From NCBI GenBank assembly GCA_030447505.1, contig JAUJOT010000006.1, positions 124,001 through 188,000 of the forward strand: a stretch of 64,000 bases of DNA. The letters run 5' to 3'. A program made the position numbers and the translations under genes. Below are positions 30,547-44,649 of the stretch, in pieces. The notes beneath the pieces are model-generated. The model did no database searches. It saw nothing but the letters and a program-made list of their open reading frames with translations, and was not told where the DNA came from. The stretch comes from Solirubrobacteraceae bacterium (lineage in GTDB: Bacteria; Actinomycetota; Thermoleophilia; Solirubrobacterales; Solirubrobacteraceae). The stretch's first letter is position 1; every line of letters begins with the position of its first letter.

Positions 30547-31293
30547 GTGAGCCTCGCCGTCGATACCGCCCGCCAATACGAGGATCTCTTCGACCTCTAC
30601 TGGCCGATCGCCGTCGGCGTCATGGCCGTCATCTGGCTCGGACTGCTCGTGCTGGCGGTGCGCTACCGGCGGCGCGAGGGCGACGAGACCTGGCCCGAGC
30701 AGACCCACGAGCGACCGCGCGCCGAGGCGGCATACGTCGCACTGCTCGCGATCATCGCCGCGGTCCTCGTCTTCTTCACGTTCACGACGATGGGAAGCCT
30801 GACCGCCGACCTGCCGGCGGAGTCGGCGAGCGGCGCAGGGCAACCGGACGCCGACCCGTCCGAGACTCCGGCGGCCGCCATCACCGTCGATGTCGTCGCC
30901 GCGCGCTGGAACTGGCGCTTTCGCTACCGCGGGCTGGGGATCGAGCAGGTCGGCGGCGGCCGGTCGATCCCGACGCTCGTCGTGCCGGTCGGCGACGTGC
31001 GCTTCTCGGCGACGTCGCTCGACGTCATCCACTCGTTCTTCATCCCGTACCTGCGCTTCAAGCGCGACGCGTTCCCCGAGCGCCGGACGAACTTCACGCT
31101 CGGCTTCCGGAAGCCGGGCTTCCACGAGGCCGAGGGCAGGTGCGCGGAGTTCTGCGGCCTGCGCCACGCGTACATGAACTTCCACGTCTGGGTGCTCGAG
31201 CGCGACGCGTTCCGGCGCTGGGTGCGCGCGCGCCAGGGTCGCGCACCGCAGGAGCTGACGCCGGCGCTCGACCGGGACGGCCGGCGGCGATGA
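30547..31293 (+). CDS. ctaC: cytochrome c oxidase subunit II
   Basis: A 248-residue protein with two N-terminal transmembrane helices (~18-38 and 60-80) and an external cupredoxin domain carrying the CuA site: His in DVIHSFFIPYLRFKRD and the set CAEFCGLRHAYMNFH, which provides two Cys, His and Met. The electron-entry aromatic region is ARWNWRFRY. It takes electrons from cytochrome c and passes them to subunit I. No signal peptide or lipobox is obvious. The GTG at 30547 is the start; it is the first gene of a seven-gene operon, overlapping subunit I by ATGA. Confidence 0.9.
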   Translation: MSLAVDTARQYEDLFDLYWPIAVGVMAVIWLGLLVLAVRYRRREGDETWPEQTHERPRAEAAYVALLAIIAAVLVFFTFTTMGSLTADLPAESASGAGQPDADPSETPAAAITVDVVAARWNWRFRYRGLGIEQVGGGRSIPTLVVPVGDVRFSATSLDVIHSFFIPYLRFKRDAFPERRTNFTLGFRKPGFHEAEGRCAEFCGLRHAYMNFHVWVLERDAFRRWVRARQGRAPQELTPALDRDGRRR

Positions 31294-32897
31294 GCACCGC
31301 CGTGCGCCCCGCCCCGCCGCGGACCCGGCTCGTGGCACTGCTCACGAGCACCGACCACAAGCACGTCGGCCTGCTGACCGGCGCGACCGCGCTGATCTTC
31401 TTTGCGCTCGGCGGCCTGCTGGCCGTGCTGATGCGCACCGAGCTCGCGCAGTCGGGGCTGCAGGTCGTCTCCGACGAGGCCTACAACCAGCTCTTCACGA
31501 TCCACGGCTCGACGATGTTCTACCTGTTCGCGTCGCCGATCGCGATGGCGTTCGCGCTGTACCTCGTCCCGCTGCAGATCGGCGCGAGCCAGATCATCTG
31601 GCCGCGCCTCGCGCTGCTGGGCTTCTGGCTGCTGCTCGGCGCGGGCGTGTTCATGTACTCCGGCTTCCTGCTGCAGGGCGGCGCCGGCAAGGCCGGGTGG
31701 TTTGCGTTCGATCCGCTGTCAGACGACGTCGGGACGCCCGGCACCGGCCAGGACCTCTGGACCCTGGCGGTGATCCTCGCCGCCCTGTCGGGGATCCTGC
31801 AGGCGGCCTGCGTGCTCGCGACGATCGTGCGCCGGCGGGCGCCGACGATGACGATGCTGCGGATGCCGGTCTTCAGCTGGTCGGCGCTCGTGTCGGTGCT
31901 GATGGTCGTGACGTCCTATCCGGCGCTCGTGCTCGCGATGACGCTGCTGTACGTCGACCGCACGACGTCGGCCGCCGTCTACGACGGCGCGATGGGCCCG
32001 ATCGTCTACCAGCACCTCTTCTGGTTCTTCGGCCACCCGGTCGTGTACGTCGTCTTCTTCCCGTTCCTCGGCGCGGTCGCCGAGGCGATCGCGACGAACT
32101 CCCGCAAGCGCTTCTTCGGCTACCCGTTCATGGTCGCGTCGCTGCTGATCTTCGCCGCGCTCTCGATGGCGGTCTGGGGCCATCACATGTTCACGACGAG
32201 CGCGATCGAGAATCGCTACTTCGCGCTGACGACGACCGCGATCCTCGTCGTCGCCGGCATCGAGTACTTCGACTGCATGGGCACGATGTGGCGCGCGAAG
32301 ATCCGCATGCGCAGCTCGATGCTGTTCGCGCTCGGCTTCCTCGCGCTGTTTCTGATCGGCGGTCTGACGGGCATCTTCGTGGCGTCGCCGCCGCTGGACT
32401 ATCACGTGCACGACACGTACTTCGTCGTCGGCCACTTCCATTACACGCTCTTCGGCGGCACCGTGTTCGGCATGTTCGCCGGGATCTACCACTGGTTTCC
32501 GAAGGTCACCGGCCGGCTGCTCGACGAGCGCTTGGGAAAGCTGCACTTCTGGCTGATGGTGCCCGGCACGCTGCTGACGTTCATCCCGATGTTCGTCCTC
32601 GGCCACGACGGCATGACGCGGCGGATCTCGAACTACGCCGCCGACCGCGGCTGGGACGGGCTGAACACGCTGTCGACGATCGGCTCCTATGTCATCGCGG
32701 CGTCGCTGCTGGTCTTCCTCGTCAACCTGCTGCGGTCGCTGCGCAGCGGCACGGTCGCCGGCGACGATCCGTGGGACGGGCACAGCCTCGAGTGGGCGAC
32801 GAGCTCGCCGCCGCCGCAGCACAACTTCGACGAGCTGCCGCCGGTCCGCTCCTACGCGCCGCTGATGGACCTGCGCGAGGAGCGATGGAGGTCATGA
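31290..32897 (+). CDS. ctaD: haem-copper oxidase subunit I, atypical proton channels
   Basis: A 535-residue protein with about 12 membrane helices. Haem and copper ligands are intact: HGSTMFY (low-spin haem), GHPVVY (CuB His249 and cross-linked Tyr253), WGHHMFT (CuB) and GHFHYTLFGG (both haems). Compared with A-type oxidases, three proton-path residues are missing: the D-channel entry Asp is Gln101 (GASQIIWPR against GAPDMAFPR), the Glu of HPEVY is Val251, and the K-channel Lys of TGIKVF is Glu325 (AGIEYF). It also lacks the YS motif of A2 enzymes. It should reduce O2 but may pump protons differently or not at all. It overlaps both neighbours. Confidence 0.9.
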   Translation: MSTAVRPAPPRTRLVALLTSTDHKHVGLLTGATALIFFALGGLLAVLMRTELAQSGLQVVSDEAYNQLFTIHGSTMFYLFASPIAMAFALYLVPLQIGASQIIWPRLALLGFWLLLGAGVFMYSGFLLQGGAGKAGWFAFDPLSDDVGTPGTGQDLWTLAVILAALSGILQAACVLATIVRRRAPTMTMLRMPVFSWSALVSVLMVVTSYPALVLAMTLLYVDRTTSAAVYDGAMGPIVYQHLFWFFGHPVVYVVFFPFLGAVAEAIATNSRKRFFGYPFMVASLLIFAALSMAVWGHHMFTTSAIENRYFALTTTAILVVAGIEYFDCMGTMWRAKIRMRSSMLFALGFLALFLIGGLTGIFVASPPLDYHVHDTYFVVGHFHYTLFGGTVFGMFAGIYHWFPKVTGRLLDERLGKLHFWLMVPGTLLTFIPMFVLGHDGMTRRISNYAADRGWDGLNTLSTIGSYVIAASLLVFLVNLLRSLRSGTVAGDDPWDGHSLEWATSSPPPQHNFDELPPVRSYAPLMDLREERWRS

Positions 32898-33310
32898 AGC
32901 GAGTCGTCAGCCGCGGATCGGGCGTCGTGCTGATCTGGGCCCTCAACCTGACCATCCTGTGGGCGGTCGCGTGGGCGATCTTCGATCCGGACGCGATGAC
33001 GGTCGCGCTCGGCGCCTGGATGGCGGGATCCGTCCTCGTCTGGGCGGCATCGGCGTGGTGGCGCGAGCGCCGCGCGGGAAGGCCGTCGGACGAGCAGCCG
33101 CTCACGATCGTCGACGCCTCGCACGCGACGGCACTGCTGGCGATCGCGATCATCGCCGCGCTGCTGGCGACGCAGTTCGGCCCCTGGCTTGCCTACATAT
33201 CGGCCGGGATCGCGCTCGTGGCCGCCGGCGGGCTCGTCCGCGAGCGCCGCGCCGCGCGGGCGTCGCTCGAGCAGGTGCGCGCCGCGGGGCGCGAGGAGCG
33301 GCCGACATGA
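32894..33310 (+). CDS. small oxidase-associated membrane protein (subunit IV-like)
   Basis: A 138-residue protein with four predicted helices (around residues 10-30, 36-53, 78-93 and 97-112) and basic linker segments. It has no recognisable catalytic residues and resembles small accessory subunits of actinobacterial oxidases in position and form. The ATG at 32894 overlaps the ctaD stop (ATGA) and its stop overlaps the next gene likewise. An ATG three codons upstream (32885) is an alternative. Confidence 0.7.
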   Translation: MKRVVSRGSGVVLIWALNLTILWAVAWAIFDPDAMTVALGAWMAGSVLVWAASAWWRERRAGRPSDEQPLTIVDASHATALLAIAIIAALLATQFGPWLAYISAGIALVAAGGLVRERRAARASLEQVRAAGREERPT

Positions 33311-34125
33311 ACGCGGGTCACGTCCATCTCGAGGTCGTTGCCTGGGTCGTCGCCGCCGGCGTCCTCTACGCCGCCGGCGTGCGGCGGGCACGCCGCCGGC
33401 GGTCGCGCGCGTGGCCCGTCCGGCGGACGCTCGCCTTCGCGGCCGGTCTCGTCGCCGTGCTCGCCGCGCTCGCGTCGCCGCTGGCCTGGCGCGCCGAGAC
33501 GCTGCTGTCCGCGCACATGCTCCAGCACCTCGTGCTCACGCTCGTCGCGGCGCCGCTCGTCGTGCTCGGCGCGCCGCTGTCGCTGGCGCTGCAGGCGTCG
33601 CGCGAGCGCCCGCGGGCGCGCCTGGCGCAGATCATCCGCAGCCGCGCGGTCCGGCTCGTCACCCACCCGCTCGTCACCTGGACGGCGTTCGCGGCGACGC
33701 TGCTGGCGACCCACCTCACCGGGCTCTACGACCTCGCCGTGCGAAACGCCGCCGTGCACGGGATCGAGCACGCGCTCTATGCCGGCACGGCGCTGCTGTT
33801 CTGGCTGCCGGTCCTGGGCACGAACCCCGTGCGCAAACTGCACGGCTGGCTCGGTCGCACGCTGTACCTGCTGCTGGCGATGCCACCGATGAGCGCGGTC
33901 TCCGCCGCGCTCGTCTACGCCGACGCGCCGCGCTACCCGTCCTACGCCGCGTCCGCCCGCGAGCTGGGGATCTCCGCGCTGGCCGACCAGCAGCTGGCGG
34001 GCGCGTACATGTGGGTCTTCGGGTCGCTGCTGATGGTCACGGCGACCGTCGCGATCGGCTGGCAGGCGCTGCTGCGCGAGGAGCGCCGCCAGCAGGCGCT
34101 CGACGCGATGGAGGCGCGCGCGTGA
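33307..34125 (+). CDS. ctaG: CtaG/Caa3-type cytochrome oxidase assembly membrane protein
   Basis: A 272-residue protein with about seven membrane helices, matching the caa3_CtaG family (not the Cox11-type CtaG). Conserved His-containing helices are LSAHMLQHLVLTLVAAPL and GIEHALYAGTALLFWLPV, and PPMSAVSAALVYADAPRYP and LADQQLAGAYMWV follow. Family members are needed for caa3 oxidase maturation and may handle copper. It overlaps the subunit IV-like gene and the cytochrome c gene by ATGA and GTGA junctions. Confidence 0.82.
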   Translation: MNAGHVHLEVVAWVVAAGVLYAAGVRRARRRRSRAWPVRRTLAFAAGLVAVLAALASPLAWRAETLLSAHMLQHLVLTLVAAPLVVLGAPLSLALQASRERPRARLAQIIRSRAVRLVTHPLVTWTAFAATLLATHLTGLYDLAVRNAAVHGIEHALYAGTALLFWLPVLGTNPVRKLHGWLGRTLYLLLAMPPMSAVSAALVYADAPRYPSYAASARELGISALADQQLAGAYMWVFGSLLMVTATVAIGWQALLREERRQQALDAMEARA

Positions 34126-34928
34126 GCCGCGCGCGCGGCATCCTGCGCCGCCTGCGCGCGCCGGTCGCCGTCGTCTGCGGCGGCGTCGCGCTGGCGAGCG
34201 TCGCCGCGCCCGCGCCGTCGCCCGTGCCCGCGCTGTCGCAGGCGGCCAACGAGCGCACCGCGCTGCTCGCGCCGACGAGCGACCGGGCCGCGCTCCTGCC
34301 CGAGGGGCGGCGGCTGTTCGTCGACGCGTGCTCGTCGTGCCATGGGGAGGACGCGCGCGGCATCGCGGGACGCGCACCGTCGCTGCGCGGAGTCGGCGAG
34401 CTCGCCGCGGACTTCTACCTGCGCACGAACAGGATGCCGCTCGACGCGCCCGACGACCAGCCGACGCGCCATCCGTCCAATGCTCTGAGCACGCAGCAGA
34501 AGCGCGCGATCGTCGCCTACATCGGCACCTTCGGCGGCCCACCGATCCCCGAGGTGCATCCCGAACGCGGCAGCCTTCCGGCGGGGCGGCGGCTGTTCGC
34601 CGAACGCTGCGCGGGCTGCCACCAGATCGTCGCGCGCGGCGGCCAGGCGCCGGGGGCGCAGATCCCGGACCTCGAGGGCGTCGCCCCGCTCGACGTCGCC
34701 GAGGCCGTCGACATCGGTCCGTACGTCATGTCGCGCTTCCGGTCGCTCAGCGACCACGAGGTCGATTCGATCGCGCGCTACGTCGCCTACGCGAAGGATC
34801 CCGAGGACCACGGCGGCTGGGGGATCGGCCACATCGGGCCGATCCCGGAGGGCATGGTGACGTGGCTGCTGGCCGCGTTCGCCCTGCTGCTGACGATCCG
34901 CATCATCGGGGAGCGCACGACGCGATGA
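34122..34928 (+). CDS. qcrC: dihaem cytochrome c of bc complex (QcrC-like)
   Basis: A 268-residue protein with an N-terminal signal-anchor (~12-30), two cytochrome c domains with haem-binding CSSCH (~residue 70) and CAGCH (~165), and a C-terminal membrane helix (TWLLAAFALLLTIRII). The second domain ends with a Met-containing YVMSRFRSLSD, a likely axial ligand region. Dihaem QcrC in actinobacteria transfers electrons directly from the bc complex to the oxidase, replacing soluble cytochrome c. The GTG start at 34122 overlaps the ctaG stop. Confidence 0.87.
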   Translation: MSRARGILRRLRAPVAVVCGGVALASVAAPAPSPVPALSQAANERTALLAPTSDRAALLPEGRRLFVDACSSCHGEDARGIAGRAPSLRGVGELAADFYLRTNRMPLDAPDDQPTRHPSNALSTQQKRAIVAYIGTFGGPPIPEVHPERGSLPAGRRLFAERCAGCHQIVARGGQAPGAQIPDLEGVAPLDVAEAVDIGPYVMSRFRSLSDHEVDSIARYVAYAKDPEDHGGWGIGHIGPIPEGMVTWLLAAFALLLTIRIIGERTTR

Positions 34929-35935
34929 GCGGCCGCCTGCGCGATTTCCTGCTGGCGCGCGTGGCCACGCGGGTCCTGCGCCGGCTGCCCGACGTCGAGC
35001 CCGCCGAGCGCCCCGGCGAGCCCGGCGTGCCGCCGCCCAACATCGAGCGCGAGCTGCCCTCCAGCGCCGGCGCCGAGCGCGCCGTCCTGGCGGCCCTCGC
35101 GCTGGCGACGCTCGCGGCGGCCGCCTTCATCGTCCTCTACGTCGCCTTCCCCGACACGCAGCTGCTCGGCCTCTCGCTGGGGCTCTCGCTCGTCGCGTTC
35201 GCGGTCGCGCTCGTCGTCGCCGGCAAGCGCGTGGTCCCGCAGGAGACGGCGGTCGAGGAGCGCGAGGACTTCGGCGACGCGCAGCGCCAGGAGGAGGTGC
35301 GCGCGATCGTGCGCCGCGGCGGCGACGGGATCTCGCGGCGGCGCATGCTGATCGGCGCGGCCGGCGCCGCCGGCGCCACGATCGGCGCCGCCGCGCTCGT
35401 GCCGGCGGCATCGCTGGGGCCGCGCGTCGGCGACCGGCTGCGCCAGTCGCCCTGGCGCCCGGGACGGCGCGTCGTCGACGCCGACGGCACGCCGCTGACC
35501 GTTGGCGACATCGAGATCGGCGGATTTCGCACCGGCTTTCCGGAGGGCGCCAAGCGCGACGAGCTGGGGTCGCCGGTCATCGTCGTGCGCTTGGAGGAGG
35601 ACGAGATCGAGCTGCCCGAAGCGCAGCGCGCGGGGATGCCGTCGGGCGTCATCGCGTTCTCGAAGATCTGCCCGCACGCCGGCTGCGCGGTCTCGATCTA
35701 CCGCCACCCCCTCTACGAGCCGACCGAGCCGCGGCCGGCGCTGGTCTGCCCCTGCCACTTCTCGACATTCGACGTGCGCCGCGGCGGCGAGCTGCTCTTC
35801 GGCCCGGCCGGCCGCCCGCTGCCGCGCCTGCCGCTGAGCATCGGCAGCGAGGGGGAGCTGATCGCCGACGGCGAGTACACCGAGAACTACGGCCCGTCGT
35901 GGAGCGGCGTGCGACAGGAGCGCGGGGAGACGTGA
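34925..35935 (+). CDS. qcrA: Rieske iron-sulfur subunit (QcrA)
   Basis: A 336-residue protein. The first ~110 residues have two membrane helices (~53-70 and 78-95), followed by a cytoplasmic Glu-rich loop and a Tat-like SRRRMLIGAAGAAGATIGAA third helix, as in the three-helix actinobacterial Rieske proteins. The C-terminal domain has the [2Fe-2S] motifs CPHAGC and CPCHFSTFD with the expected two Cys and two His. It accepts electrons from quinol in the bc complex. The ATG at 34925 overlaps the qcrC stop. Confidence 0.9.
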   Translation: MSGRLRDFLLARVATRVLRRLPDVEPAERPGEPGVPPPNIERELPSSAGAERAVLAALALATLAAAAFIVLYVAFPDTQLLGLSLGLSLVAFAVALVVAGKRVVPQETAVEEREDFGDAQRQEEVRAIVRRGGDGISRRRMLIGAAGAAGATIGAAALVPAASLGPRVGDRLRQSPWRPGRRVVDADGTPLTVGDIEIGGFRTGFPEGAKRDELGSPVIVVRLEEDEIELPEAQRAGMPSGVIAFSKICPHAGCAVSIYRHPLYEPTEPRPALVCPCHFSTFDVRRGGELLFGPAGRPLPRLPLSIGSEGELIADGEYTENYGPSWSGVRQERGET

Positions 35936-37383
35936 TCGGAGATCCGGTCCGCTTCGTCGACGAGCGCCTCAACACGGCGTCGCTGGTGCGCAAGGCGCTG
36001 CGCTACGTCTTCCCCGACCACTGGTCGTTCATGCTGGGCGAGATCGCGCTGTACGCGTTCCTCGTCCTCGTCGGCACGGGGATCTTCCTGGCCTTCAACT
36101 ACGTGCCGAGCGACGCAGAGACGGTCTACCGCGGGACGTACGAGCCGCTGCGCGGCACGCCGATGTCCGAGGCCTACAAGTCGGTCGTCGACCTGTCGCT
36201 CGACGTGCCCGCCGGGCTGCTGATCCGCCAGACCCACCACTGGGCGGCGAACGTCTTCATCGCCGCGATCGTGCTGCACCTCGTGCGGATCCTCTTCACG
36301 GGCGCGTTTCGCAAGCCGCGCGAGATCAACTACTGGATCGGCCTGACGATGCTCGCGGTCGCGATCCTCGAGGGCTTCCTCGGGTACTCGCTCATCGACG
36401 ACCTGCTGTCCGGCATGGGGCTGGCGATCGCCTACTCGGTGGCGCTCGCGACGCCCGTCATCGGCGCCGACGTTGCGCTGCTGATCTGGGGCGGCGAGTA
36501 CCCGGGCGCCACCGTCTTCTGGGATCGCATCTTCACGGTGCACATCCTGATCCTGCCGCTCCTGCTGGCCGGGCTCATCAGCCTGCACATGCTCATCCTC
36601 ACCAAGCAGCACCACACGCAGTTTCCGGGGCCCAAGCGCACCGAGCGCAACGTCGTGGGCACGCCGCTGTGGCCCGGCTACGCGCTGCGCTCGCTCGGTC
36701 TGCTGTTCGCGACCGCGGGCGTGCTGTTCCTGCTCGGCGGGCTCGTGCAGATCAATCCGGTCTGGCTGTGGGGCCCGTACGAGCCGTACCTGTCGACGAA
36801 CGCCGCGCAGCCGGACTGGTATCTGGGCTGGCTGATCGGCGGGCTGCGCATCATGCCGCCGCTGGAGCCGGTGATCGGCGACTACACGCTCGTCGGCAAC
36901 GCGTTCTTCATGGGCGCGCTGTTTCCGCTCGTGGCCTTCGGCGTCCTGTACCTGTGGCCGTTGATCGATCGCCGCTGGAGCGGCGCCGGCGAGCGCCACG
37001 AGCTGCTGGACCGCCCGCGCGACAACCCGCGCCGCAGCGCCGCACTGGTCGCGTTCCTCACGTGGGTGGCAATCCCGTTCGTGGCCGGCGCGACCGACCG
37101 CGTCTTCTACCGTCTCGGCGTCCCCTACGACCTCCAGATATGGGCGTTCCGGGTGCTCTTCGTCGTCGGCCCGTTCCTCGCGTGGCTCGTCGCGCGGCGC
37201 ATCTTCGAGGACCTGCACGACCGCGACGCGCATCCGCTGCGCGGCTGGACGGGGCGCGTCGTGCAGCGCAACGCCCGCGGCGGCTTCGAGACGCTCGGCG
37301 CCTACGACGGCCGCACGCGCGGCGAGGGCGGCGCCGAGCGCGACGAGGCGACGGTGGCGGCCGACGTGCCGGCGGAGCGCTAG
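35932..37383 (+). CDS. qcrB: cytochrome b subunit (QcrB)
   Basis: A 483-residue protein with about nine helices. Four haem-ligating His are in THHWAANVFIAAIVLHLVR and FTVHILILPLLLAGLISLH; the quinol-site PEWY motif reads PDWY (QPDWYLGWLIG), as in many actinobacteria. A long C-terminal cytoplasmic tail is present. It oxidises menaquinol and passes electrons to QcrA and across the membrane. A GTG at 35932 overlaps the qcrA stop. It ends the respiratory operon; its TAG lies within a CTAG palindrome shared with the convergent lipoprotein stop. Confidence 0.9.
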   Translation: MIGDPVRFVDERLNTASLVRKALRYVFPDHWSFMLGEIALYAFLVLVGTGIFLAFNYVPSDAETVYRGTYEPLRGTPMSEAYKSVVDLSLDVPAGLLIRQTHHWAANVFIAAIVLHLVRILFTGAFRKPREINYWIGLTMLAVAILEGFLGYSLIDDLLSGMGLAIAYSVALATPVIGADVALLIWGGEYPGATVFWDRIFTVHILILPLLLAGLISLHMLILTKQHHTQFPGPKRTERNVVGTPLWPGYALRSLGLLFATAGVLFLLGGLVQINPVWLWGPYEPYLSTNAAQPDWYLGWLIGGLRIMPPLEPVIGDYTLVGNAFFMGALFPLVAFGVLYLWPLIDRRWSGAGERHELLDRPRDNPRRSAALVAFLTWVAIPFVAGATDRVFYRLGVPYDLQIWAFRVLFVVGPFLAWLVARRIFEDLHDRDAHPLRGWTGRVVQRNARGGFETLGAYDGRTRGEGGAERDEATVAADVPAER

Positions 37384-38535: not shown

Positions 38536-38661
38536 TCACATGCCCTCGAACTTCGCGTAGCGCCACATCGCCGGCCCTTCGTCGCGCAGCGCCCTCAGCA
38601 GCACGCCGCCGAGCAGCACGCCGAGCGCGATCGCGACCGGCTTGGGTACGTGGATCGTCAT
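38536..38661 (-). CDS. 41-residue membrane micro-protein at end of hydrogenase operon (DUF6893-like)
   Basis: A 41-residue protein with one hydrophobic helix (VAIALGVLLGGVLLRAL, residues ~9-25) and a C-terminal RYAKFEGM. Its ATG overlaps the stop of the maturation-protease gene by four bases (38658-38661), matching the other junctions of the operon, so it is very probably translated. It resembles the small DUF6893-type proteins seen with actinobacterial hydrogenase genes. It may anchor or stabilise the enzyme at the membrane. Confidence 0.7.
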   Translation of the reverse strand: MTIHVPKPVAIALGVLLGGVLLRALRDEGPAMWRYAKFEGM

Positions 38662-39461
38662 CGGGTCACCTCTTCTCGTCGCAGGTCTTCGATCAGCGAG
38701 CAGACGAGCTCGACGGCGACATCGACCGCCGCCTGCACGGGCTCGCTGAGCTCGGCGTGGATCTCCTCGCCGTCGGGATCGCCGAGATCCTGCGGCTCGC
38801 AGCCGACGACGAGCGTGCGCCGTGGCAGCGCGCCGAACCGGCGTGCGAAGTGCAGGACCGCGACCGGGTCCAGGCCATGCGCCTCGAAGCCGACGGCAAG
38901 CTCGGGATCGAGCTCGGGCTCGATGACCTCGAGCGTCCCCGGCGGCTGCCCGCGCGGGGCGGCATCGATCATCAGCGCAGCGTCGTAGCCGTCGGCGAGG
39001 GCGTAGGCGAGGTCCATCGCGCGGATGCCGAAGTCGACGACATCGACGCCGTCGGGCAGCGCCCGCCGCGCCAGCCGCCCTGCGACCTCGACGCCGAAGC
39101 CGTCGTCGCCGAGGAAGATGTTGCCGATCCCGGCGACCAGCACCCGCGGCGGCGCGGGGACGGCGCCATCGTCGAGCGGCTGGACCTCCTCCGGCGCGAA
39201 GAAGAAGCGGTGGCCGAGCCCGCGGCCCTTGCCGAGCGTCCGCGCCGGGTCGTCCTCGAGCGAGACCGTCAGCGCCACGCGGTCGTCGAGGTCCGTCATG
39301 ACGGCGTCGACGATCGCCCGCCGGCCGTCGAGGCCGCGCATGAGGATGTCGCCCGACGCCTGCGGGCGCAGCAGCACACGGCTGCCGGCGCGCACCTCGA
39401 CGCCTGCGATCGTGACGCTCTCGGCGCCGGCTCGCTGCAGCTCGGCGCGACCGTCGATCAT
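38658..39461 (-). CDS. hydrogenase maturation protease with extra N-terminal domain
   Basis: A 267-residue protein. Residues ~105-260 form an M52 (HycI/HybD) maturation endopeptidase: GIGNIFLGDDGFGVEVA has the nickel-sensing Glu/Asp, DFGIRAMDLAYAL follows, and AHGLDPVAVLHFA carries the His. The enzyme trims the C terminus of the large subunit after Ni insertion. The first ~100 residues, with a small beta-rich domain (SVTIAGVEVRAGSRVLLRP), are not part of the usual protease and look like a fused accessory domain. It overlaps the genes on both sides by ATGA junctions. Confidence 0.85.
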   Translation of the reverse strand: MIDGRAELQRAGAESVTIAGVEVRAGSRVLLRPQASGDILMRGLDGRRAIVDAVMTDLDDRVALTVSLEDDPARTLGKGRGLGHRFFFAPEEVQPLDDGAVPAPPRVLVAGIGNIFLGDDGFGVEVAGRLARRALPDGVDVVDFGIRAMDLAYALADGYDAALMIDAAPRGQPPGTLEVIEPELDPELAVGFEAHGLDPVAVLHFARRFGALPRRTLVVGCEPQDLGDPDGEEIHAELSEPVQAAVDVAVELVCSLIEDLRREEVTR

Positions 39462-40453
39462 GGCCGCTCCAGCGGGCGCAGCTCGCGCACCGCGCCGTGC
39501 AGGTCGAGCATCTGCTCGGGCGACAGCGCCAGGCTGCGGTCGAGGATCTCGCGCACGCGCGGGTCGGTCGCGCGCATCTCCTCGCGCTCGGCGTCGCTCA
39601 GGGCGCGGATGCTGTGGATCAGCAGCGCGTCGATCTCGCCGCCGTCGAACAGGTCGCCCGGACTCTCGGGCGCGACCGCCGGATAGTCCGACAGGATGAT
39701 CGGCGAGCCGAGCAGCGTGTCGCGGGCGCCCTGCTCACCGACGAGCACGGGCCAGACGCCGTCGTTGCGACACGCGTCGGCGGCGCTGCGCAGCGCGTCG
39801 GGCGGGTCGGTCTGCGAGACGAGCTGCGCGCCGGAGGCCTGCACGACGAGGTGCGTCGAGAGGAAGGTCCGGCGCAGCGCGTCAGAGCGCTCGCGGGCGT
39901 CGCTCTGCGAGGTGTTGGCAAAGCGCACCGTCAGTCGGTGCAGCCCGCGGCGCAGCTCGCGCGCCGAGATCTCGAGCTCACCGTCGAGCTGCTCGAAGCG
40001 GCGCACGAGCACGCCGTCCTCGCCGAGCTCCTCGATCTGCTCGCCCGCCGGCTGCGCGACGGGGACGCCGAGCCCAGCGCTCAGCTCGGCCAGCGTGACA
40101 GGGCCGGCGCGCAGCTCGCGCTCGGTCGCCTCCTCGAAGGCCAGGTACCGCTCTCCGTCGACGTGCAGCTCGTCGGCGGGCTGCAGTGCTCCGGCGCTGC
40201 GACGCGCGGGGCGGCGGTCGACGAGCTGCAGGAAGCGCAGGCCGAGCTCCACGCGCGCCTGCGGCGGGCCCTCGAGCAGGCACTCCATGACGATCTGCGA
40301 GCGGTCGCCGCAGCGCTGCGCGTAGCGGGCGGGATGGACGCAGCCGAACGTGAAGCGCTGCTGGTTCTTCAGCGCGCTGCGCCGGTAGGGCCACAGCAGG
40401 TAGCCCTCGTAGAGCACCGCACGCGCGATCGCCTGCACGGCGTCGGCGCTCAT
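39458..40453 (-). CDS. hydrogenase-operon protein of unknown function
   Basis: A 331-residue protein with no recognised catalytic motif. It begins MSADAVQAIARAVLYEGYLL with a conserved-looking WPYRRSALKNQQRFTFG, and has central segments RFLQLVDRRP and GLHRLTVRFANTSQ and a C-terminal helical part (LSPEQMLDLHGAVREL). The start and stop overlap the neighbours (40450-40453 and 39458-39461), so it is an integral part of the hydrogenase operon. It is likely a conserved accessory factor of group 1h hydrogenases, of unknown role. Confidence 0.7.
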   Translation of the reverse strand: MSADAVQAIARAVLYEGYLLWPYRRSALKNQQRFTFGCVHPARYAQRCGDRSQIVMECLLEGPPQARVELGLRFLQLVDRRPARRSAGALQPADELHVDGERYLAFEEATERELRAGPVTLAELSAGLGVPVAQPAGEQIEELGEDGVLVRRFEQLDGELEISARELRRGLHRLTVRFANTSQSDARERSDALRRTFLSTHLVVQASGAQLVSQTDPPDALRSAADACRNDGVWPVLVGEQGARDTLLGSPIILSDYPAVAPESPGDLFDGGEIDALLIHSIRALSDAEREEMRATDPRVREILDRSLALSPEQMLDLHGAVRELRPLERP

Positions 40454-41091
40454 CCGCCCGCCTCCGACAGCAGCGCGTCGAGCGTGTCCTCCCAACTCGC
40501 GAAGCCGCGGCGCGAGCGCTCCGCCTGCAGCCGCGCGAAGACGTCGCGGTGCACGCGCAGCCAGGGCGCGTCGCCGAAGGCGCTGCGCATCGCGTCGCGC
40601 CAGACGGCGACCGGCATGCGCGCCGACGCGTCGCGGTCCCACGGCACGAGCGCGGTCTGCAGGCGCCCGTCGGGCGCCGTGAAGAACAGCGTCCCGCTGA
40701 ACAGCAGCTCGAGCGGGATCTCCCCGCCCTCGAGCGCCGCGAGGTACTTCGCCGCGACGACGTCGAAGTCGTAGCTGCAGGCGACGCGCAGCTCGACCGT
40801 CGTGGCAGCATCGAAGGCCGGCACGTTGAGCGTCGCCTCCGCCCATGGAACGGGGTTCAGCGTGCGCGCCCACTGCTCGGCGTCGCCGAACAGCTCGCGC
40901 AGCCGCTCGCGCTCCTGCGCCTCGTAGCGCCTGCGCTGCGCGGCGATCTGCAGCCGCACGTTGAGCCCGAGCCCGCGTACGGGACGCGCGTCGGCGGCCT
41001 CGATCCGCACGCGGAAGGTCAGCGTCGGCACCGCCGCCGTCCGCACGGCGCCGACGTCCTGGACCGCGAACTCGAGCGCCGGCGCCTGCAG
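40450..41091 (-). CDS. DUF6084-like hydrogenase accessory protein
   Basis: About 213 residues. The conserved pattern ALEFAVQDVG, PTLTFRVRIE, RYEAQERERLRELFGDAEQW, PFAEATLNVPAF-like VPAFDAATTVELRV, LELLFSGTLFF and PVAVWRDAMRS matches a family found with group 1h hydrogenase genes (DUF6084). The start is problematic: homologous sequence begins at about 41091, where only a CTG codon is available; the first standard start is a GTG at 41046, which would remove 15 conserved residues. It starts five bases after the stop of the 73-residue protein. It probably helps assemble the hydrogenase. Confidence 0.75.
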   Translation of the reverse strand: MQAPALEFAVQDVGAVRTAAVPTLTFRVRIEAADARPVRGLGLNVRLQIAAQRRRYEAQERERLRELFGDAEQWARTLNPVPWAEATLNVPAFDAATTVELRVACSYDFDVVAAKYLAALEGGEIPLELLFSGTLFFTAPDGRLQTALVPWDRDASARMPVAVWRDAMRSAFGDAPWLRVHRDVFARLQAERSRRGFASWEDTLDALLSEAGG

Positions 41092-41096
41092 GCGAT

Positions 41097-41318
41097 CTAC
41101 GGCGGCGACAGGTTCGGCATGTCGGGATGGACCGGGTCGACGATCTCCGGCGAGATCCCCGTCGAGCGCGTCGAGTTCGAGCGGCCGTCCGGGAAGTGCC
41201 CCGGCTGCTTCTCGTAGCTGCCCACGCTGTTGCCCTGCTTGACGCCCTTCGTGTGCGATGTCAGATCCGGCTTCACCGGCAGGATCTGCTTCCACAGCGA
41301 CTTCAGCTGGTGCAGCAC
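41097..41318 (-). CDS. 73-residue hydrogenase-operon protein, unknown function
   Basis: A small basic protein (MLHQLKSLWKQILPVKPDL at the start, Pro-rich C terminus with HPDMPNLSPP). A GTG at 41318 is preceded by a strong ribosome-binding site (AGGAGG, minus strand, about 41325-41332), which makes it clearly a gene despite its size. It lies between the DUF5947-like and DUF6084-like genes. No family was recognised. Confidence 0.7.
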   Translation of the reverse strand: MLHQLKSLWKQILPVKPDLTSHTKGVKQGNSVGSYEKQPGHFPDGRSNSTRSTGISPEIVDPVHPDMPNLSPP

Positions 41319-41339
41319 CGTTCCTCCTCTTCATCGTCG

Positions 41340-41984
41340 TCATGTGCGGCGGTCCGTCCTCGCGTGCAGGCCGTCGAAGAACCGCGCGAGCTCCTGCCAG
41401 ACCGCGTCGCCGCCGCCGAGGCCGCGCCAGTGGCGGCGGACGAGCGCGACGAGGCGGTAGCACTCGTCGACGCCGACGACGAACGCGTCGCGCGCGCCGC
41501 CGGCGCGGCTGACGAGCAGCGCCTCGACGTCCGGGCGCATTTGCGCCAGCGCGGGGTTGTCGGCCTCGATCTCGCTCCACGCCGCGAGCTCGAGCTCGGA
41601 TTCCGTGCAGCCGGCGGGGCTGGGATAGAACGCGGTGACGCGCCCCGTGTCGCCGTCGCGCAGGAAGAAGGCCATGTCGACGGGCAGGTCGAGCGAGCGC
41701 CAGGCGAGGTCGTCGAGCCGGAACTCCTCGAGTCGGACGCAGCGATCGGGAACGAGCCGGTAGTGCTGGCCGCCGGCCGCGTCGTGGTCGAAGAGCACCT
41801 GGCAGGCGCGGCAGGCGCACAGCAGCTGGCGCCGGCTGAGGTCGACGACGTGGCGATGGACCTCGGGCACCGGCAGGCCGCACAGCTCGCAGTGCTCGCG
41901 CTGCTCCTCCGCAGGCCGGGCAGGCGCCGGGGGAGTGGCGCGCTCGATGAGCGCGCGCAGGCGCGGTGCAGCGGTCGTCGTCAC
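41340..41984 (-). CDS. DUF5947-like zinc-ribbon hydrogenase accessory protein
   Basis: A 214-residue protein with an N-terminal metal-binding motif CELCGLPVPEVHRH and CACRACQVLFD, followed by YRLVPDRCVRLEEF, DLPVDMAFFLRD and VFVGVDECYRLV-type strands. The pattern matches the DUF5947 family that accompanies group 1h hydrogenases in actinobacteria. The GTG at 41984 overlaps the stop of the upstream NifU-like gene by four bases. It may bind Zn or help in metal-centre assembly. Confidence 0.78.
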   Translation of the reverse strand: MTTTAAPRLRALIERATPPAPARPAEEQREHCELCGLPVPEVHRHVVDLSRRQLLCACRACQVLFDHDAAGGQHYRLVPDRCVRLEEFRLDDLAWRSLDLPVDMAFFLRDGDTGRVTAFYPSPAGCTESELELAAWSEIEADNPALAQMRPDVEALLVSRAGGARDAFVVGVDECYRLVALVRRHWRGLGGGDAVWQELARFFDGLHARTDRRT

Positions 41985-42844
41985 GCCGCGACCCCGTCCA
42001 GTGCGACGCGGACCGCGCCGCCGTCGGCGACGAGCAGCGGCACGGGGTCGAGCTGCAGCAGCCCGCCGCCGACCGCCTGCCCGGCGCGGCGCACGTCGTA
42101 GCGCCGCCCGCAGCCGCCGCAGACCAGCGCGCCTTGGCCGTCGATCGTCGGATCGTCGATTGCGCCCTGGCAGCCGGGGCAGCGGTCGACGTAGGCGTAC
42201 AGCTCGTCCTCGAGCGCGCAGAACAGCAGCGCCGCGCCGTCGACCTCGCGCCGCAGCGGCGCGCCGCCTTCGCTCAGCGTCGCGAGCGCGCCGGCCGCCG
42301 CCCAGCGCGCCGCGGCGGCGACGGGGAGGCCGACCTGGACCATCGGCAGCACGGCACCGGTCGGGGCGGGCGCCGCGGACGCCTGCTCCTCGTCGACCGC
42401 CTCGACGGAATGGATCTCGGGCGCCGCCTTGAGGACCGCGTCCTCGATCGCGAGCTTCAGCGTGACCGTCGACGCCGCGCAGCCGCTGCAGGTGCCCTCG
42501 AGGCGCACGCGGACGACCCCGTCCGCGATCTCGACGAGCTCGACGCCGCCGCCGTGGGAGCCCATGTAGGGGCTGACCTCCTCGAGCGCGGCGAGCACGC
42601 GCTCCTCGACGCTCGTCGGGTGCAGGTCGTGCAGCAGCAGCAGCGTGGCGACGAGCTCGTCCTCGCTCAGCGCGGCGGCGTCGTCGACGCGCTCGAGGAT
42701 CCGCCGCAGGCCCTCGCCGTAGAGCCCGAGCAGCCCCTGGACGGCCTCCAGCGCGCAGCCGCGGGCCGGCTCGGGCAGCTCTTCGAGCTGCTCGAGCAGC
42801 CGCTCGACGGCCTCGACCTCCTCGTGGACGCGCGCGTCTTCCAT
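41981..42844 (-). CDS. NifU-like Fe-S scaffold / zinc-ribbon fusion protein
   Basis: A 287-residue protein. The first ~80 residues are helical; residues ~85-150 form a NifU C-terminal-type domain with SPYMGSHGGGVELVEI and the cluster-binding CSGCAAS; the last ~100 residues have a four-Cys site, CPGCQG and CGGCGRRYDV, resembling a Rieske-like fold with His ligands replaced by Cys, or a zinc ribbon. It may assemble or deliver Fe-S clusters for the small subunit. It is 11 bases downstream of hhyL. Confidence 0.82.
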   Translation of the reverse strand: MEDARVHEEVEAVERLLEQLEELPEPARGCALEAVQGLLGLYGEGLRRILERVDDAAALSEDELVATLLLLHDLHPTSVEERVLAALEEVSPYMGSHGGGVELVEIADGVVRVRLEGTCSGCAASTVTLKLAIEDAVLKAAPEIHSVEAVDEEQASAAPAPTGAVLPMVQVGLPVAAAARWAAAGALATLSEGGAPLRREVDGAALLFCALEDELYAYVDRCPGCQGAIDDPTIDGQGALVCGGCGRRYDVRRAGQAVGGGLLQLDPVPLLVADGGAVRVALDGVAA

Positions 42845-42855
42845 CAGACCACGAG

Positions 42856-44649
42856 CTAGGAGCGCTCGCCGAACATCGGCGAGTGCAGGCGCTGGATCGT
42901 CTTGCCCTTGCCGAGGTACATGTGCACGCCGCAGGGCAGGCAGGGGTCAAACGAGCGCACCGCGCGCATGATGTCGACGCCGCGGAACTCGTCGGGCCCG
43001 TTCTCCTCGAACAGCGGCATCCCCGCGATCGCGTCCTCGTAGGGGCCGAGGCGCCCGTCCGAATCGGTCGGGCTGCCGTTCCAGCAGGTCGGCGGCCAGG
43101 GCTGGTAGTTGGCGATCTTGCCGTCGCGGATGACGAGGTGGTGCGACAGCACGCCGCGCACCGCCTCGTGGAAGCCGCAGCCGATCGCCTCGTCGGGGAC
43201 GTCGAAGTCGGTGAACGTCTTCGTGTTGCCCTTGCGGACGAGGTCCATCCCCTGCTCGACGAAGTGCAGCGCCTTCGCCGCCGAGTAGGCGATGTAGTAG
43301 ATCCGCGCCCGGTTGCGCTCCAGCGCGTTGCACCACTGCGGCGGGCGCCACTCGAAGGTCATCTCCGGCAGCGCGCGCGAGCGCGGCAGGTTGATCTGGA
43401 CGCTGTGGCCGGTCGCCTTGACGTGCTTGGTGTCCACGAGGCCGGCCAGCGCGGTCACCCAGAGGCGGGCCAGCGGCCCGCCGCCGCTCTCCAGCGCGAG
43501 CGTCTCCTGGGTCTTCGGGTTGACCCAGCGCGGGCTCATGACCCAGCTGTACTTGCCGCCCTCCAGATCGCGCTTCTGCGGCCGCGGGAGGGTCGTGACG
43601 TTCCACGGGTGGCGCTGGTCGACGGGGTTGCCGAGCGGGTCCTTGTCGACGAACTTCTCCTCGTCGGACCAGTCGTCGTAGTAGGAGGAGCCGAGCATGA
43701 TCCGGATGCCGAGGTTGATGTCGAGCAGGCTCGTCGTGACGAGCTCGTTGTCGATGATCACGCCGGGCGTGACGTGCATCCGCCGGCCCCAGTCCTCCAT
43801 GTCCTCGTAGCGGTAGTTGACGGCGTCGGCGTTCTGGAAGGCGCCCCAGCAGCCGAGCTGGGTGCGGCGCAGCCCGACCTGCTCGTAGCCGGGCAGCGCC
43901 TCGTAGAAGAAGTCGAAGACGTCGTCGTTCATCCCGACGCCCTTTTTGACGAAGTCGAGGATCTTCAGCAGCCGCGCCATGTAGTCGGTGAAGACCTGCG
44001 TCGTCGCCATCGTCCCCGTGCCGCCCGGATAGATCGTCGACGGGTGGACGTGGCGCCCCTCCATCAGGCAGAACATCTCGCGCGTCGTGCGGCTGACCTC
44101 CAGCGCGGCGAGGTACATGTCGCCGCTGAACGGGTTGAACGCGCGCATGATGTCGCCGATCGTGCGGTAGCCGTGGATCTCGGCACCGGGCGCATCGGTC
44201 TTGTTCGCGCGATCGAGCAGGCTCGGGTTCGTCTCCTTGACGATCTGCTCGCAGTAGTCGACGAAGACCATGTTGTCCTGGAAGAGCGTGTGGTCGAACA
44301 TGTACTCGGCGGCCTCGCCGAGGTTGAAGATCGTCTCGGCGAGGTGCGGCATCGAGATGCCGTAGGCCATGTTCTGCGCGTAGACCGAGCAGACGGTGTG
44401 GTTGTCGCCGCAGATGCCGCAGATGCGCGACGTGATGAAGCCGGCGTCACGCGGGTCCTTGCCCTTCATGAAGACGCTGTAGCCGCGAAACAGCGAGGAG
44501 GTGCTCTTGCACTCCACGACCTCACGCGCGTCGAAGTCGATCTTCGTGTAGATCCCGAGGTTGCCGATGATCCGCGTCACCGGGTCCCAGGAGCGCGCGA
44601 CGATGTTGCGCTTGTCGGCCCCGGGCTGCACCCGTTCTGTCGTCGCCAT
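42856..44649 (-). CDS. hhyL: [NiFe]-hydrogenase large subunit, group 1h
   Basis: A 597-residue catalytic subunit that oxidises H2. Nickel-iron ligands are in L1 (SRICGICGDNHTVCS) and L2 (DPCLPCGVHMYLGKGK), four Cys in all. The sequence has a C-terminal extension after the cleavage His, to be removed by the operon's protease. The signature and gene order fit the high-affinity, oxygen-tolerant group 1h (actinobacterial) enzymes that consume atmospheric H2. The ATG at 44649 is five bases from the hhyS stop, so the two subunits are cotranslated. Identification is firm. Confidence 0.95.
   Translation of the reverse strand: MATTERVQPGADKRNIVARSWDPVTRIIGNLGIYTKIDFDAREVVECKSTSSLFRGYSVFMKGKDPRDAGFITSRICGICGDNHTVCSVYAQNMAYGISMPHLAETIFNLGEAAEYMFDHTLFQDNMVFVDYCEQIVKETNPSLLDRANKTDAPGAEIHGYRTIGDIMRAFNPFSGDMYLAALEVSRTTREMFCLMEGRHVHPSTIYPGGTGTMATTQVFTDYMARLLKILDFVKKGVGMNDDVFDFFYEALPGYEQVGLRRTQLGCWGAFQNADAVNYRYEDMEDWGRRMHVTPGVIIDNELVTTSLLDINLGIRIMLGSSYYDDWSDEEKFVDKDPLGNPVDQRHPWNVTTLPRPQKRDLEGGKYSWVMSPRWVNPKTQETLALESGGGPLARLWVTALAGLVDTKHVKATGHSVQINLPRSRALPEMTFEWRPPQWCNALERNRARIYYIAYSAAKALHFVEQGMDLVRKGNTKTFTDFDVPDEAIGCGFHEAVRGVLSHHLVIRDGKIANYQPWPPTCWNGSPTDSDGRLGPYEDAIAGMPLFEENGPDEFRGVDIMRAVRSFDPCLPCGVHMYLGKGKTIQRLHSPMFGERS

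What the first reader, a model, noticed from the sequence alone, without database searches (positions are those of the whole stretch)
31290..32897. Haem-copper oxidase that lacks D-channel and K-channel residues
Aligned by eye with A-type oxidases of Paracoccus/Rhodobacter without gaps in the relevant helices, the D-channel entry Asp is Gln101, the Glu of HPEVY is Val251, and the K-channel Lys is Glu325. All haem and CuB ligands and the cross-linked Tyr253 remain, and it lacks the YS motif of A2 enzymes. Proton uptake must use another path or pumping may be absent. It is possibly an unusual oxidase subclass coupled to a bcc complex in the same operon.
Basis: partly seen in the sequence, partly recalled or inferred. 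Interest (0 to 1): 0.8.

Follow-up and report, generated by a model that had tools for sequence, protein, structure and literature searches.

The report
Oxidase with dismantled D, rewired K channel
A group of actinobacteria carry a respiratory oxygen-consuming enzyme, encoded in one operon with its electron-supplying complex, in which the usual proton channels of its family have been dismantled and one key lysine has become an invariant glutamate; it offers a natural test of how these enzymes take up and pump protons.

Summary
Window 31290-32897 (+) encodes a 535-aa CtaD. Gapless alignment with mycobacterial CtaD gives D-channel Asp→Gln101, gate Glu→Val251 and K-channel Lys→Glu325. All haem/CuB ligands and Tyr253 are kept. 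It is not an isolated oddity. Thirty-six homologues (34 from genomes of the window's class, plus Paraconexibacter and Amycolatopsis) form one clade (support 100). In 36/36, K-channel Lys is Glu and its Thr partner is Ala; the D-channel Glu is always Val or Leu. In 93 related canonical enzymes N113/D124/N131/N199/T351/K354 are invariant. The D-channel entry position varies freely in the clade. The K-channel entry Glu in subunit II is kept in 32/35, so the K route looks remodelled rather than lost. The gene sits in a conserved operon ctaC-ctaD-(small membrane ORF)-ctaG-qcrC-qcrA-qcrB with no subunit III. Every genome checked has further oxidases. The clade branches beside actinobacterial bcc-aa3 CtaD, so the channels were lost, not never gained. 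Best reading: a bcc-linked A-lineage oxidase with a sealed D channel and one Glu-based K-like channel, with reduced or no pumping. Function is inferred. I found no description of it in the open literature searched.

The parts
30547..31293 (+). ctaC, oxidase subunit II with two N-terminal TM helices and a complete CuA site (H, C, C, H, M); K-channel entry Glu at codon 30724-30726
   Evidence: COX2 Pfam 7.1e-12; best solved match C. glutamicum CtaC 5.4e-22; CuA ligands 35/35 and entry Glu 32/35 in orthologues. GTG start at 30547 is a choice; the frame is open further upstream.
31290..32897 (+). ctaD, subunit I (535 aa), the finding: D-channel residues absent, K-channel Lys replaced by Glu325
   Evidence: COX1 Pfam 1.4e-131. 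Below the curated cut-offs of NF050116 (618 vs 880) and TIGR02891 (585 vs 670.75).
31590..31592 (+). Gln101, at the D-channel entry Asp position (D124 P. denitrificans, D115 M. smegmatis); a variable position in the clade
32034..32048 (+). HPVVY motif: His249 (CuB), Val251 in place of the D-channel Glu, Tyr253 (cross-linking Tyr)
   Evidence: V 35/36, L 1/36, Tyr 36/36
32229..32267 (+). helix VIII segment T314...A322-G-I-E325-Y326: clade-specific, replaces the K-channel T351...K354
   Evidence: T314, A322, E325 and Y326 36/36 in the clade; T351 and K354 93/93 in canonical enzymes
32894..33310 (+). small membrane-protein ORF (138 aa), placed like a subunit IV / CtaF; homology to CtaF not shown
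   Evidence: an ORF of this kind lies between ctaD and ctaG in all 12 loci read; no solved-structure match and no Pfam match above cut-off
33307..34125 (+). ctaG, Caa3_CtaG-type oxidase assembly factor
   Evidence: PF09678 1.9e-66
34122..34928 (+). qcrC, dihaem cytochrome cc with C-terminal TM helix
   Evidence: NF050122 6.8e-45, below that model's cut-off; M. smegmatis QcrC 1.5e-31; two CxxCH motifs
34925..35935 (+). qcrA, Rieske iron-sulfur protein
   Evidence: QcrA_N and Rieske Pfam; C. glutamicum QcrA 1.6e-25
35899..37383 (+). qcrB, cytochrome b of the bcc complex (start could also be a GTG about 11 codons further on)
   Evidence: NF050120 521.6 bits, above cut-off 500; M. tuberculosis QcrB 4e-105; the only full-length QcrB-type hit in the genome

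Best explanation
This is the catalytic subunit of a cytochrome c oxidase of the A lineage that works inside a bcc-oxidase unit. Electrons run quinol -> QcrB/QcrA -> QcrC (dihaem) -> CuA in CtaC -> low-spin haem -> haem/CuB site with the His249-Tyr253 pair, where O2 is reduced to water. The D channel has been dismantled and its region filled with hydrophobic residues (Val251, Phe256, Phe257, Phe288). All protons for water formation are taken up through one remodelled K-type channel: subunit II Glu at the entry -> Glu325 in place of Lys -> Tyr253. Pumping is therefore likely lower than in A1/A2 enzymes (0-0.5 H+/e-), by analogy with B and C enzymes. Shown: the residues, their conservation, the operon, the clade and its branching inside family A. 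Inferred: cofactors, assembly with bcc, O2 reduction, use of the Glu route, and pumping stoichiometry.
For: Gapless alignment with solved CtaD; predicted model matches R. sphaeroides subunit I (Z 41.8, 476 residues, rmsd 2.6) and M. smegmatis CtaD (Z 41.3, 507 residues, rmsd 3.3). Clade contrast 36 vs 93: N113, D124, N131, N199, T351, K354 are 93/93 canonical; in the clade Thr351->Ala and Lys->Glu are 36/36, and Phe256/257/288 are 36/36. All haem/CuB ligands and Tyr253 are present in every sequence that reaches them. Subunit II CuA ligands 35/35; K-entry Glu 32/35. Conserved operon with qcrCAB. No COX3 at this operon in 14 genomes searched with a model that rings in C. glutamicum. Close-pair dN/dS 0.06-0.36. 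Clade 100/100, beside actinobacterial CtaD 94/89. B and C families lack an active D channel, take substrate protons by a K-like channel and pump at about 0.5 H+/e- (PMC12901375; PMC3084760).
Against: No biochemistry, no expression data, no coordinates to trace a water path. Besides Lys, the K-channel Thr (to Ala) and Ser (to Ala/Gly/Leu) are also lost, so a continuous route from Glu325 to Tyr253 is not shown. The M. smegmatis K-entry Glu539 of CtaD is Tyr522 here. Three of 35 CtaC sequences lack the entry Glu. The sister position to actinobacterial CtaD is not starred.
Confidence: 0.6

Rival explanations
1. A non-pumping O2 reductase: neither channel works as such; substrate protons enter by a new path (possibly from the outer face, as proposed for NORs) and energy is conserved only by the Q cycle of the bcc part.
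For: Every D-channel residue and K, T, S of the K channel are replaced. The P-side metal-site Asp (D375) is kept in only 13 of 35 clade members, and the CtaC Glu within the CuA loop is replaced in several. No subunit III at the operon.
Against: Glu325 and the subunit II entry Glu are conserved while the D-channel positions vary, which points to a used N-side route. The P-side arginines R444 and R445 are kept. B and C enzymes pump without a D channel (PMC12901375).
Confidence: 0.25
2. Pumping runs at normal or near-normal stoichiometry through another route, such as the disputed H pathway, with the K-like route only for substrate protons.
For: PMC12901375 argues that the H pathway, not the D pathway, is the conserved pump; the Arg at bovine R38 (R49), Tyr377 and R444/R445 are kept.
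Against: The H pathway is contested; in M. smegmatis that region is poorly hydrated (PMC11189923); bovine Ser382 is Phe388 here, as in canonical actinobacterial enzymes.
Confidence: 0.08
3. An NO reductase of the haem-copper superfamily rather than an oxidase.
For: Some A-like HCOs mis-annotated as oxidases are NORs (eNOR), and several NOR types have no predicted proton channel (PMC8756737).
Against: The cross-linking Tyr253 is 36/36; NOR types carry Q, E, N or D at the diagnostic place (table A4 of PMC8756737). CuA and bcc genes fit an oxidase.
Confidence: 0.04
4. A decaying paralogue with no function.
For: Patchy distribution (36 of 232 genomes of the order); other oxidases always present.
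Against: All ligands, CuA ligands and the operon are kept, and close-pair dN/dS is 0.06-0.36. The operon carries the only full-length bcc-type QcrB of the window's genome.
Confidence: 0.03

Closest known systems
Actinobacterial CtaD of the obligate bcc-aa3 supercomplex (M. smegmatis, M. tuberculosis, C. glutamicum; A1 type)
   Same: Nearest by sequence (about 45-50%) and tree, and a close fold match; metal ligands, Tyr, C-terminal tail, bcc partner with dihaem QcrC
   Different: All D-channel residues lost, K-channel Lys to Glu and Thr to Ala, no COX3/CtaE in the operon, oxidase and qcrCAB genes in one operon
B-family (ba3) and C-family (cbb3) oxidases
   Same: Inactive D channel with other residues at the same positions; a single K-like route in the proposed reading (PMC12901375 table 2)
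   Different: Not their sequence family; B has Thr/Ser/Tyr in the K route (PMC3084760), here it is Glu/Ala/Ala; ba3 matches only at about 28 bits
Family-A oxidases with altered K or D channels (archaeal COX1 in PMC8239418; ctaD of Paraburkholderia L187, Azospirillum L189, Pseudosulfitobacter L192, Natrinema L190)
   Same: K-channel Lys lost in family A (Gln or Ile); some D-channel Asn/Asp lost
   Different: The four read here keep the HPEVY Glu, and none has Glu for Lys or loses the whole D channel
eNOR
   Same: Haem-copper subunit I with a cupredoxin subunit II, often annotated as an oxidase (PMC8756737)
   Different: eNOR has Gln for the active-site Tyr; here Tyr is invariant

Membership tests
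Haem-copper superfamily, subunit I | COX1 fold with low-spin and high-spin haem His ligands and three CuB His | tested here: met
   PF00115 439.8 bits; ligands conserved; fold Z 41.8 to R. sphaeroides
O2 reductase versus NO reductase | Tyr that cross-links to a CuB His (HPxxY) | tested here: met
   Tyr253 36/36; the cross-link itself is not testable here
A family by descent | Branches among A-family subunit I, not with B | tested here: met
   Inside A with a B-type-like outgroup and beside actinobacterial CtaD, 94/89
A type as defined by channels (Pereira/Sousa) | D channel: Asp124, Asn199, Asn113, Asn131, Tyr35, Ser134, Ser193, Glu278 (A1) or Tyr-Ser (A2) | tested here: not met
   Y35, N113, S134, N199 and the Glu are 0/36; Asp 4/36, Asn131 2/36; no YS; definition from PMC3084760
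A type as defined by channels (Pereira/Sousa) | K channel: Lys354, Thr351, Ser291, Tyr280 | tested here: not met
   Lys 0/36 (Glu 36/36), Thr351 0/36, Ser291 0/36 (one Thr); Tyr280 36/36
B type | Alternative K channel with Thr, Ser, Tyr at the K354, T351, S291 positions | tested here: not met
   Glu, Ala, Ala/Gly/Leu
bcc-aa3 supercomplex | qcrCAB genes with dihaem QcrC tied to ctaC/ctaD | tested here: met
bcc-aa3 supercomplex | Subunit III equivalent CtaE plus CtaF | tested here: not met
   No COX3 at the operon in 14 genomes. CtaF: a small membrane ORF sits in that place but no homology was found
bcc-aa3 supercomplex | Physical III2-IV2 assembly | not testable with these tools
   needs purified complex
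eNOR | Gln in place of active-site Tyr | tested here: not met
   Tyr 36/36

The most novel reading that the evidence does not exclude
Within family A, a lineage independently evolved a single-channel oxidase: it shed the whole D channel and replaced the K-channel lysine by an acidic relay (subunit II Glu to Glu325), and it either pumps by a D-independent mechanism or respires without pumping while the bcc part alone conserves energy.
Probability: 0.5. Interest if true: 0.8.

Novelty: new variant of a known kind. Interest (0 to 1): 0.63.

Why it matters
The A family is defined by its D and K channels, and whether the D channel carries the pumped protons is still argued (PMC12901375). D-less comparisons so far are distant B and C enzymes or point mutants. 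This clade is a natural A-lineage enzyme, about half identical to well-studied actinobacterial CtaD, that has lost the D channel entirely and swapped Lys for Glu. Measuring H+/e- in it would test directly whether an A-lineage enzyme needs the D channel to pump. It also means that residue-based classifiers, and energy-yield models that assume 1 H+/e- for every CtaD, may be wrong for these bacteria.

Tried and rejected
Alternative alignments placing Asp, Glu or Lys nearby: none; the helices align without gaps and the clade shares one register. A2 (YS) enzyme: position 247 is Tyr or Phe, but the Ser is Gly/Ala. NOR: Tyr invariant. B type: pattern and tree do not fit. A charge swap (Lys moved to the subunit II entry) was considered: that position stays Glu in 32/35. 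Small ORF as CtaF: profile search of solved structures gave nothing, so left unassigned. Linkage with the NiFe hydrogenase next door in the window: not found in the orthologous loci. A phylum-wide pattern scan (396 genomes) found only the window's own copy; it uses one exact peptide pattern, so it is a lower bound. Plasmid collection: no member; the best match is a canonical 50% ctaD. No paper found that describes such a clade; subscription papers are not in the library. B-family structures are not among the 50 rows shown, which says nothing by itself. No sigma-70-like promoter or Rfam element was found in the operon region.

Full report
1. Check of the observation. Window 31290-32897 (+) translates into a 535-residue protein without interruption, COX1 by Pfam at 439.8 bits. 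The closest solved relatives are subunits I of actinobacterial bcc-aa3 supercomplexes (8hcr_F 560 bits, 6adq_F 546 bits); Thermus caa3 follows at 430, Paracoccus at 334 and Thermus ba3 at about 28 bits. The printed alignments have no gap in the relevant helices and put Gln101 on the D-channel Asp, Val251 on the Glu of HPEVY and Glu325 on the K-channel Lys. Codons were read back from the window.

2. Against the list of D- and K-channel residues in PMC3084760, the protein lacks every D-channel residue and three of the four K-channel residues; only the Tyr is left. The curated NCBI models for actinobacterial CtaD and for general CtaD both score it below their cut-offs.

3. It is a conserved clade. 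A search of 299 genomes of the class gave 10 more proteins at 55-62% identity, then a clear drop to 48% or less for canonical enzymes. All ten, found by overall similarity and not by the residues, have Glu for Lys and Val/Leu for Glu. A DNA pattern for HP[V/L]VYVxFFP, which does not include the Lys position, hit 36 of 232 genomes of the order. Two named organisms were found: Paraconexibacter antarcticus 02-257 and Amycolatopsis taiwanensis DSM 45107. In 36 aligned members: Glu325, Ala322, Thr314, Tyr326, Phe256, Phe257, Phe288 and Tyr253 are 36/36, Val251 35/36. The Asp position is E, R, D, S, Q, A, G, T or N. In 93 canonical relatives N113, D124, N131, N199, T351 and K354 are 93/93. The pattern selected for Val/Leu251 and the Phe pair in part of the set, so those counts are partly circular; the Lys-to-Glu count is not.

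4. Operon. In the loci read, the order ctaC-ctaD-small membrane ORF-ctaG-qcrC-qcrA-qcrB recurs. Some contigs or fetched stretches end before qcrB, and Amycolatopsis has only ctaC-ctaD-ORF-ctaG-like-qcrB. In the window most neighbouring genes overlap by about four bases. QcrB, QcrC, QcrA and CtaC match the supercomplex subunits of mycobacteria and corynebacteria. The operon holds the only full-length bcc-type QcrB of the window's genome; other clade genomes have one such protein plus a 31-35% match over about 220 residues, like a b6-type protein. A COX3 model that rings in C. glutamicum found COX3 in 13 of 14 clade genomes; in each the strong match lies 2-3 kb from a canonical oxidase subunit I, or for one (G150) within the canonical cluster, and never at this operon. 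In R. sphaeroides subunit III matters for D-channel proton uptake (review PMC8361435), so its absence fits D-channel loss.

5. The K route. Subunit II keeps the Glu that lies at the K-channel entry in canonical enzymes in 32 of 35 sequences, and all CuA ligands in 35 of 35. By contrast the D-channel entry position varies freely. That asymmetry is the main reason to think protons enter by a rebuilt K-type route with Glu325, rather than by no N-side route at all. The two partners (Thr to Ala, Ser to Ala/Gly/Leu) are lost, and the mycobacterial entry Glu539 (PMC11189923) is Tyr522 here, so the route has clearly changed and its upper part is not known.

6. Descent. A tree with a distant B-like outgroup puts the clade inside family A. 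A careful tree of 41 sequences gives the clade 100/100 and joins it to actinobacterial CtaD with 94/89, next to Chloroflexota and A2 enzymes that all have canonical channels. The channels were therefore most likely lost on the branch leading to this clade. dN/dS for close pairs is 0.06-0.36 (two more distant pairs give 0.5-0.65, where the method is unreliable), which speaks against decay.

7. What it works like, and what it is. It works most like a cytochrome c oxidase of a bcc supercomplex, with a proton-uptake layout resembling the single-channel B and C enzymes. By descent it is family A; by the residue definition of A1/A2 it is not a member, and the B pattern is not met either. Loss of D does not prove loss of pumping, since B and C enzymes pump at about 0.5 H+/e- (PMC12901375). 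I commit to a Glu-based single K-like channel with reduced or absent pumping at 0.6.

8. Limits on novelty. K-channel loss in family A is already reported for archaea (PMC8239418). What looks new is the complete loss of the D channel in an A-lineage oxidase together with an invariant Glu for Lys and a fixed bcc operon. The open papers searched do not describe it; subscription papers could.

Noticed in passing
L181 (G286:C93:93300-95700) and L184 (G675:C20:73300-75400): COX1 homologues (253-277 bits) in one genus of the order have lost nearly every metal ligand: H72 to Y, H249 to S/T, Y253 to M, HH to QN, H382 to A, H384 to S/H. They lie about 7-8 kb from a canonical oxidase subunit I; similar low-scoring matches occur in G671, G672 and G676. 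A ligandless pseudo-oxidase subunit kept as a full-length ORF.
   Followed up: partly
L187 (Paraburkholderia sp. D15 plasmid), L189 (Azospirillum brasilense p4), L192 (Pseudosulfitobacter P4): Family-A ctaD with Gln for the K-channel Lys and several D-channel residues replaced, but HPEVY Glu kept; a second kind of channel-altered A oxidase, outside the other A enzymes in the trees made here.
   Followed up: partly
window 38658-44649 (-): A NiFe hydrogenase large subunit (42856-44649) and what looks like a hydrogenase maturation protease lie just downstream on the other strand; neither was found near the orthologous oxidase operons.
   Followed up: partly
window 32894-33310: Small membrane ORF of unknown family between ctaD and ctaG, present in all 12 loci read, with little sequence conservation.
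   Followed up: partly
L045:1793-8060: In Amycolatopsis taiwanensis the cluster has ctaC-ctaD-ORF-ctaG-like-qcrB but no qcrC or qcrA next to it; the next genes are DUF421 and hemerythrin.
   Followed up: partly
G000:C1:136027-143993: The host genome has two further neighbouring oxidase subunits I with canonical channels, one HPEVY (A1) and one YSHPAVY (A2), and its only COX3 there.
   Followed up: yes
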